Assembly: GCA_009777725.1 (NCBI GenBank)
Contig: WRLG01000015.1
Location: 1 to 64,000, forward strand
Source of the DNA: Oscillospiraceae bacterium
Lineage (GTDB): Bacteria; Bacillota; Clostridia; Oscillospirales; Ruminococcaceae
DNA: 64,000 bases
Reading direction: 5' to 3'
The number at the start of each line of letters is the position of its first letter. Positions within the stretch are counted from its first letter, which is position 1. The notes beneath the pieces are model-generated. The model searched no databases. It saw nothing but the letters and a program-made list of their open reading frames with translations, and had not been told where the DNA came from. Positions 50,965 to 52,219 of this stretch are shown here, piece by piece. The translations under genes were made by a program, and so were the position numbers.

Positions 50965-51032
50965 AAATACAGAAAACCCAAAAAATTAACAAGAAAGGTC
51001 TTGATTTTAATGTCCAAATGTGCTACAATTTT

Positions 51033-51095
51033 AGCAAGCAAGCAAGCAAGCAAGCAAGCAAGCAAGCAAGCAAGCAAGCAAGCAAGCAAGCAAGC
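51033..51095 (+). repeat. (AGCA)15.75 tetranucleotide tract
   Basis: The 63-bp tract lies between ATG 51010 and the signal-peptide codons of the BspA-like protein. No stop occurs in any frame inside it. The distance from ATG to the CTT codon at 51095 is 85 nt, so this length puts the start codon out of frame; loss of one unit or gain of two restores it. Slipped-strand phase variation is expected. Confidence 0.8.
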
Positions 51096-51115
51096 TTATC
51101 TCTGCCCTAACCGCC

Positions 51116-52219
51116 TTGGCAATCTTCATCTCAATCTTCACCGTGCTGAATGTTTCAGCTGAAACTTTTTCCGGCGATGGCTGGTCTTTCGATTCCGATA
51201 CAGGTACGCTCACAGTTTCCACGCACGAAGGCACATACTGGTGGCGAACACAGAAACCTTCGTCTGTTGAGTTTAGCGATATAACAACCATTATAATTGG
51301 AAACAGCGTTACGCATATAGGTGATGATGCGTTTCGGTCAACAGGCATAACCACCATAACCATACCCGAGAGCGTTATCTACGTAACTGCTCCAGCGTTT
51401 AGTAATTGCACAAACTTAACCGCAATAACCGTTGCACCTGCTAACAGCAATTTTTCAGATATTGACGGCGTGTTATTCAATAAAGACGCAACCGAGCTAA
51501 TCAAATACCCGAATGGGAACGCAAGAACAAGCTACACAATTCCAAACAGCGTTACGAGCATACCGCAGGAGGCATTTGCGTTTATAACAGCCCCGCTTTC
51601 GATAACATTCAATTCACAAACCCCGCCGACATTCGGCGGTAATGTATTTTTTCAAAACACCGGCGAAATCACAATAGTTGTCCCATACGGTGCAAAAGCG
51701 GCATATGCGGAGATTTGGCAGTTGAGTAACTTCACTATACATGAACGCCCCGCCCCTGCTATCCACGATGACAATGAAAACAACAACCGCGGCGGAAACT
51801 TCGTAAGAGATACAATCATCAGCGGCGGCGGAATCGGCGGCGCGGCAGGCAATATAAACGGCAATAACAACTCCGAAATCAACGGTCATTTTGAAAATGA
51901 CACCTACATAAAACATTCCGAAATCCCGCTGGTTTACACAGCAGACAAAAATTTTGCAGACTTCAGAGAAGTCCGCATAAACGGTCGCCGCCTAACCAAA
52001 GGAACGCATTATACCGTCAAAAGCGGCTCAACAATCATCACGCTCCTACCCGAATATTTAGACACACTTGATGAGGGAGAACATGAATTGAGCGTTCATT
52101 TCAGCGGGCTTGCAGTGGTTAAAGCTTCGTTTACTATTGAAAATGCCGAGTATGATGAGTATGACGATGTTTCAACTTTGGCGGGGATTTTGGAGGATTT
52201 TGATTCAATTGACAATTGA
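51116..52219 (+). CDS. BspA-like leucine-rich-repeat secreted protein, probably phase-variable
   Basis: The frame encodes a signal peptide (LISALTALAIFISIFTVLNVSA, interrupted here at its middle by the TTG start given), BspA/LRR_5 repeats (TTIIIGNSVTHIGDDAFRST, TTITIPESVIYVTAPAFSN) to about residue 200, a Gly/Asn-rich linker, and a C-terminal X2-like domain (YTADKNFADFREVRINGRRL). The natural start is surely ATG 51010 with MSKCATIL, which is out of frame by one nucleotide at the present AGCA count. TTG 51116 would remove half of the signal peptide and has no ribosome site. The last residues SIDN and the stop come from the dispersed repeat. It is probably a surface adhesin-like protein. Confidence 0.75.
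   Translation: MAIFISIFTVLNVSAETFSGDGWSFDSDTGTLTVSTHEGTYWWRTQKPSSVEFSDITTIIIGNSVTHIGDDAFRSTGITTITIPESVIYVTAPAFSNCTNLTAITVAPANSNFSDIDGVLFNKDATELIKYPNGNARTSYTIPNSVTSIPQEAFAFITAPLSITFNSQTPPTFGGNVFFQNTGEITIVVPYGAKAAYAEIWQLSNFTIHERPAPAIHDDNENNNRGGNFVRDTIISGGGIGGAAGNINGNNNSEINGHFENDTYIKHSEIPLVYTADKNFADFREVRINGRRLTKGTHYTVKSGSTIITLLPEYLDTLDEGEHELSVHFSGLAVVKASFTIENAEYDEYDDVSTLAGILEDFDSIDN

What the first reader, a model, noticed from the sequence alone, without database searches (positions are those of the whole stretch)
51010..52219. Phase-variable BspA-like surface protein behind an AGCA tract, now in the off frame
The tract (AGCA)15.75 lies between ATG 51010 and the signal-peptide codons. The ATG-to-signal distance is 85 nt, one more than a multiple of three, so the start reads to a stop near 51163. 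Losing one unit or gaining two joins MSKCATIL, an ASKQ-repeat n-region, and LISALTALAIF in one frame. The tract has no stop in any frame, as expected of a selected switch. Tetranucleotide switches are best known in Proteobacteria and are much less described in Clostridia.
Basis: partly seen in the sequence, partly recalled or inferred. Interest (0 to 1): 0.82.

Follow-up and report, generated by a model that had tools for sequence, protein, structure and literature searches.

The report
Repeat-length switch before surface-protein genes
A stretch of repeated AGCA letters that easily gains or loses copies sits inside a small leader gene in front of surface-protein genes in many gut Clostridia, and its length probably turns those genes on or off; in the copy seen here the leader is fused straight onto the surface protein and reads in an off frame.

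Summary
In detail: (AGCA)15.75 at 51033-51095, ATG 51010, signal-peptide frame off by one; the gene is BspA-like (LRR_5, CBM_X2). In 33 of 37 dissimilar leaders the exit frames include one stopping well before the terminator and one reaching it (shuffles 22.6; 0 of 3000 as high). This is the anatomy of the phase-variable attenuator shown in Streptococcus gallolyticus pil1/pil3 (GCAGA repeats, PMC3894217); I infer the same mechanism with AGCA. The window copy is a derived fusion: terminator, ribosome site and gene start are gone and the tract runs into the signal peptide, so slippage should switch translation directly. Unexplained: all seven complete fused copies here share one off phase. No expression or read-level data were available. 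New variant of a known kind.

The parts
50936..50964 (+). Promoter P1 (TTGACA 50936-50941, 17 nt, extended -10 TATAAT 50959-50964); only its transcript can carry ATG 51010
   Evidence: sequence; P1-like site upstream of 87 nonredundant leaders: 43 score >=10.5 vs 2.5 in shuffles
50991..50998 (+). Ribosome-binding-like AAGAAAGG, 11 nt before ATG 51010
   Evidence: sequence; purine run AAAAGGG before the P2 -35 in other genomes
51001..51029 (+). Promoter-like P2 (TTGATT, 17 nt, extended -10 TACAAT 51024-51029); many other copies have TTGACA; predicted start in the first repeats
   Evidence: sequence; -10 at exactly spacing 17 in 84 unique leaders (A2 79%, T6 85%)
51010..51162 (+). Leader ORF MSKCATIL(ASKQ)n..., 50 codons; current frame ends at TGA 51160-51162, out of frame with the surface protein
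51033..51095 (+). (AGCA)15.75 tract
51035..52219 (+). BspA-like secreted protein, open frame of 394 codons after the TAG that precedes the tract; signal peptide LISALTALAIFISIFTVLNVSA at 51095-51160; no ATG or ribosome site of its own
   Evidence: Pfam LRR_5 and CBM_X2
48822..48987 (+). Second cassette copy: ATG 48862, tract 48885-48895 (2.75 units), leader ORF to 48915, terminator stem 48943-48981; no gene follows on this strand

Best explanation
The tract is a slippage-prone repeat inside a short leader ORF transcribed from P1. In the usual form of the cassette an intrinsic terminator follows 33-63 nt after the tract. AGCA is open in every frame but its length is not a multiple of three, so the repeat number picks the exit frame: in some frames the ribosome stops far before the terminator, the hairpin forms and the gene stays off; in others it runs into or over the hairpin, blocks it, and the gene is transcribed. 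At the window locus a deletion or recombination joined the tract directly to the signal-peptide codons of a BspA-like protein, removing terminator, ribosome site and start codon, so repeat number should switch translation from ATG 51010 directly; the assembled length is off. Shown here: the anatomy, its recurrence, the statistics of terminator and exit frames, and length differences between orthologous loci elsewhere. Inferred: use of ATG 51010, antitermination, slippage at this locus.
For: Dispersed leader, >=20 copies. All 14 tract loci taken from other genomes of the order and class without selecting for flanks have the leader with an ATG open into the tract. Terminator 20-90 nt after the tract in 37 of 51 dissimilar leaders vs 2.85 shuffled, median gap 49. 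Both an off-like and an on-like exit frame in 33 of 37 vs 22.6, 0 of 3000 shuffles (off limit of 28 nt from PMC3894217). P1: 43/87 vs 2.5. Orthologous loci with 99-100% identical flanks carry 89 and 25 nt of tract. First genes signal-like 37/62 vs 83/474 control ORFs. Same anatomy shown by experiment to work in S. gallolyticus.
Against: No transcript, ribosome or protein data. P2, if active, makes transcripts without the leader start. All seven complete fused copies in this genome have the same off phase (about 1 in 729 if phase were random; about 1 in 64 if all must be off). The terminator is absent at the window locus, so attenuation does not apply there. 14 of 51 dissimilar leaders lack a terminator by this search.
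Confidence: 0.68

Rival explanations
1. The tract acts as a 5' untranslated repeat: transcripts start at P2 in the tract and repeat number tunes promoter output or RNA stability; the ATG in P2 is incidental.
For: P2 is strongly conserved, with the tract 2-6 nt after its -10 box; termite-gut Betaproteobacteria have promoter plus tract mostly without an ATG.
Against: An ATG close behind the -35 with a purine-rich site is found in most clostridial copies and is always open into the tract; exit frames are arranged non-randomly; P1 is conserved.
Confidence: 0.15
2. Fused copies such as this one are not switched by ATG 51010: they are silent fusions, or are translated in the conserved frame by a start not recognised here.
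For: All seven complete fused copies share the off phase; an in-frame TAG precedes the tract and TAG is an ordinary stop here (9 of 43).
Against: Most fused genes are intact and differ in the signal-peptide codons mainly by synonymous changes, so they are probably translated at times; an unrelated fused acyltransferase (L158) is in frame with its ATG.
Confidence: 0.13
3. A neutral microsatellite spread with a repeat element, without a switching role.
For: Multi-copy leader; orphan copies without a gene, as at 48822.
Against: Same anatomy in unrelated genera with unrelated sequence; terminator spacing and exit-frame statistics.
Confidence: 0.04

Closest known systems
Streptococcus gallolyticus pil1/pil3 phase-variable attenuator (Danne 2014, PMC3894217)
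   Same: Promoter, ribosome site, leader ORF holding a repeat whose unit is not a multiple of three, premature terminator a few tens of nt later (33 bp at pil3), surface gene behind; exit frame predicts expression there
   Different: GCAGA not AGCA; Streptococcus not Clostridia; two loci in one strain, not tens; one mapped start site, no second promoter at the tract reported; no fused form reported
ORF-internal tetranucleotide switches of Haemophilus and Neisseria (lex2A, oafA and others; from memory)
   Same: Tetranucleotide repeat between start codon and coding region; frame sets on/off; GCAA is the same unit in another register; acyltransferases are targets in both
   Different: The window copy derives from a leader cassette overlapping a promoter, and the gene has lost its own start
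Moraxella catarrhalis uspA2 AGAT repeats (from memory)
   Same: Tetranucleotide repeat just downstream of the promoter of a surface protein
   Different: Untranslated repeat; no leader ORF or terminator logic

Membership tests
Repeat-switched leader-peptide attenuator (S. gallolyticus pil1 type), cassette as a whole | Promoter upstream of a leader ORF with ribosome site and ATG | tested here: met
Repeat-switched leader-peptide attenuator (S. gallolyticus pil1 type), cassette as a whole | Repeat unit not a multiple of three inside the leader ORF, variable in number | tested here: met
   AGCA; 89 vs 25 nt at orthologous loci
Repeat-switched leader-peptide attenuator (S. gallolyticus pil1 type), cassette as a whole | Terminator shortly after the repeat, with early- and late-stopping exit frames | tested here: met
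   37 of 51 dissimilar leaders; 33 of 37 with both kinds of frame
Repeat-switched leader-peptide attenuator (S. gallolyticus pil1 type), cassette as a whole | Leader length shown to control transcription | not testable with these tools
   needs reporters or RNA data
Repeat-switched leader-peptide attenuator, the window copy 51010-52219 | Terminator between repeat and gene | tested here: not met
   none found; tract fused to signal codons
ORF-internal repeat switch, the window copy | Repeat between start codon and coding region, frame set by repeat number | tested here: met
   (currently off); use of the start codon itself is inferred
ORF-internal repeat switch, the window copy | Mixed repeat numbers in the population and on/off protein | not testable with these tools
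   no reads or strains of this species at hand
BspA-like surface protein | LRR_5 repeats and a secretion signal | tested here: met
   LRR_5 3e-15, CBM_X2 6.7e-8; signal complete only if translated from upstream
Known RNA leader families (Rfam) | Match to a curated family | tested here: not met
   no leader hit

The most novel reading that the evidence does not exclude
The second promoter, whose start point is the first repeat, is part of the device: it either makes a repeat-tipped terminated small RNA or drives transcription through the tract so that the switching rate itself is regulated, across a class-wide set of attenuators in gut Clostridia.
Probability: 0.15. Interest if true: 0.82.

Novelty: new variant of a known kind. 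Interest (0 to 1): 0.62.

Why it matters
Repeat-switched attenuation is, in the library searched, known only from two pilus loci of one Streptococcus. If the inference holds, it is a recurrent device of gut Clostridia, Erysipelotrichaceae and relatives, controlling secreted proteins, acyltransferases and regulators, and it is readable from sequence: repeat number plus exit frame predicts on or off. That would let metagenomes be scored for the state of surface genes in commensals that cannot easily be manipulated.

Tried and rejected
Exact leader pattern in genome contigs: nothing. Rfam: no family. TAG recoding to rescue the signal frame: rejected, TAG is an ordinary stop. TTG 51116 as start: rejected, it is CTG in sister copies and would remove the charged n-region. 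Frame preservation by duplication alone: tracts differ (3, 3, 6, 9, 15, 18 units). Copy C36 dropped, its tract runs off the contig end. hsdS-like hits (L201, L216, L217) and Haemophilus/Neisseria and other non-clostridial loci left out of the leader statistics. The genome contigs set was selected for TTGACA, so that hexamer's conservation there is by construction; the other features were not selected. The shuffle tests treat leaders below 65% identity as independent, which is only roughly true; a first version mislocated two terminators and was repeated. Literature: no description of such repeats in Clostridia found.

Full report
1. The observation. The tract (AGCA)15.75 is at 51033-51095, perfect. 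ATG 51010 is 85 nt from the signal codons, so the two are out of frame; from the ATG the frame ends at TGA 51160-51162. The protein carries BspA-type LRR_5 and CBM_X2.

2. What surrounds it. The 60-90 nt before the tract are a dispersed repeat: at least 20 copies in the 2.77 Mb genome, two of them in this window. Nearly all have TTGA(CA/TT)-N17-TACAAT directly before the tract (P2), and most also TTGACA-N17-TATAAT about 35-42 nt further up (P1). ATG 51010 lies in the P2 spacer, so it can only be read from P1 transcripts.

3. Two forms. In terminator-type copies the tract is followed by about 47 nt and a strong hairpin with a T run, then, in eight copies, a gene with its own ribosome site and ATG (C5:87, C7:90669, C9:44308, C22:19531, C4, C28:19, C8, C12:79835). 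In fused copies the tract runs straight into signal-peptide codons with no start or ribosome site: C15:51033 (window), C10:31166, C5:4195, C31:356, C28:29532, C16:67133, C36:3 (cut by the contig end) and a lipoprotein at C22:12846. A terminator-type gene begins MLSRKTTRKFRIISALTALAIF..., the fused ones (ASKQ)nASKLISALTALAIF..., so the fusion replaced the first codons.

4. Other genomes. A search of 394 genomes of the order for (AGCA)5.75 hit 10 besides this one, and of 293 of the class two more; the 14 loci read all have such a leader with an ATG open into the tract, although the sequences are otherwise largely unrelated.

5. Statistics. In 84 unique clostridial leaders the -10 box is at spacing 17 (A2 79%, T6 85%), the tract begins mostly 31-35 nt after the start of the -35, and an ATG lies within 7 nt behind the -35 in 64; ATGs within 11 nt are open into the tract in 69 of 69. 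P1-like sites: 43 of 87 score 10.5 or more, shuffles 2.5. Terminators: 37 of 51 dissimilar leaders, shuffles 2.85, gap median 49, range 33-63. Exit frames: 34 of 37 leaders have one or two of three frames reaching the stem, shuffles 27.1, p 0.0025; with limits guided by the Streptococcus work (stop at least 28 nt before the stem counts as off, within 15 nt or beyond as on) 33 of 37 have both kinds, shuffles 22.6, none of 3000 as high. By the ATG frame the assembled leaders are a mixture, 14 on, 11 off.

6. Variability. Two genomes with 99-100% identical flanks carry 89 and 25 nt of tract at the same locus; another pair at 88-94% carries 79 and 51. Nothing of the kind could be measured for the window locus itself.

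7. Targets. 37 of 62 first genes look secreted against 83 of 474 control ORFs (crude test); Pfam finds LRR_5, CBM_X2, InlB-type repeats, MBG, dockerin, Rib, plus MalT/LuxR-like and TetR regulators, and acyltransferase 3 in four fused cases, of which one is in frame with its ATG (L158) and three are not.

8. Mechanism and what is known. This is the anatomy of the S. gallolyticus pil1/pil3 switch, where added or lost GCAGA units change leader length and ribosomes reaching the terminator raise transcription. I found no other report of it. I infer the same mechanism for the AGCA cassette. At the window locus the terminator is gone and the switch should act on translation.

9. What does not fit. 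The seven complete fused copies here have 3, 3, 6, 9, 15 and 18 whole units or (C16, 16 units) a different junction, and all fall in the same phase, +1 from the ATG, while terminator-type copies are free. Selection for one frame would explain it, but in that frame a TAG precedes the tract and no start follows until codons that are not conserved. Either all were last switched off by one added unit, or initiation in these genes is not understood. I leave this open.

Noticed in passing
48822-48987: Orphan cassette copy with 2.75 units and terminator, no gene behind on the same strand; several such short copies in the genome, often facing a convergent gene
   Followed up: partly
49022-49840 (-) and 50010-50939 (+): Two similar PDDEXK_2 (Rpn-like) genes in opposite orientation between the two cassette copies; the second, and another at 54912-55826, carry 12/24-bp tandem repeats coding GRQEGRQE-like stretches
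   Followed up: partly
52260-52360: Palindromes such as CGGGACAGGCTTGCCTGTCCCG, similar ones seen downstream of cassette copies in other contigs (REP-like)
   Followed up: no
L181, L187, L196, L230, L231, L243: Termite-gut Betaproteobacteria carry TTGACA-N17-CATAAT-like promoter plus (AAGC)n tract, mostly without a leader ATG
   Followed up: no
L201, L216, L217: AGCA tracts inside what look like hsdS specificity genes (QYEYYRDxLLT...)
   Followed up: no
own genome contigs C15, C10, C5, C31, C28, C16, C22: All seven complete tract-to-gene fusions share the same off phase; unexplained
   Followed up: partly
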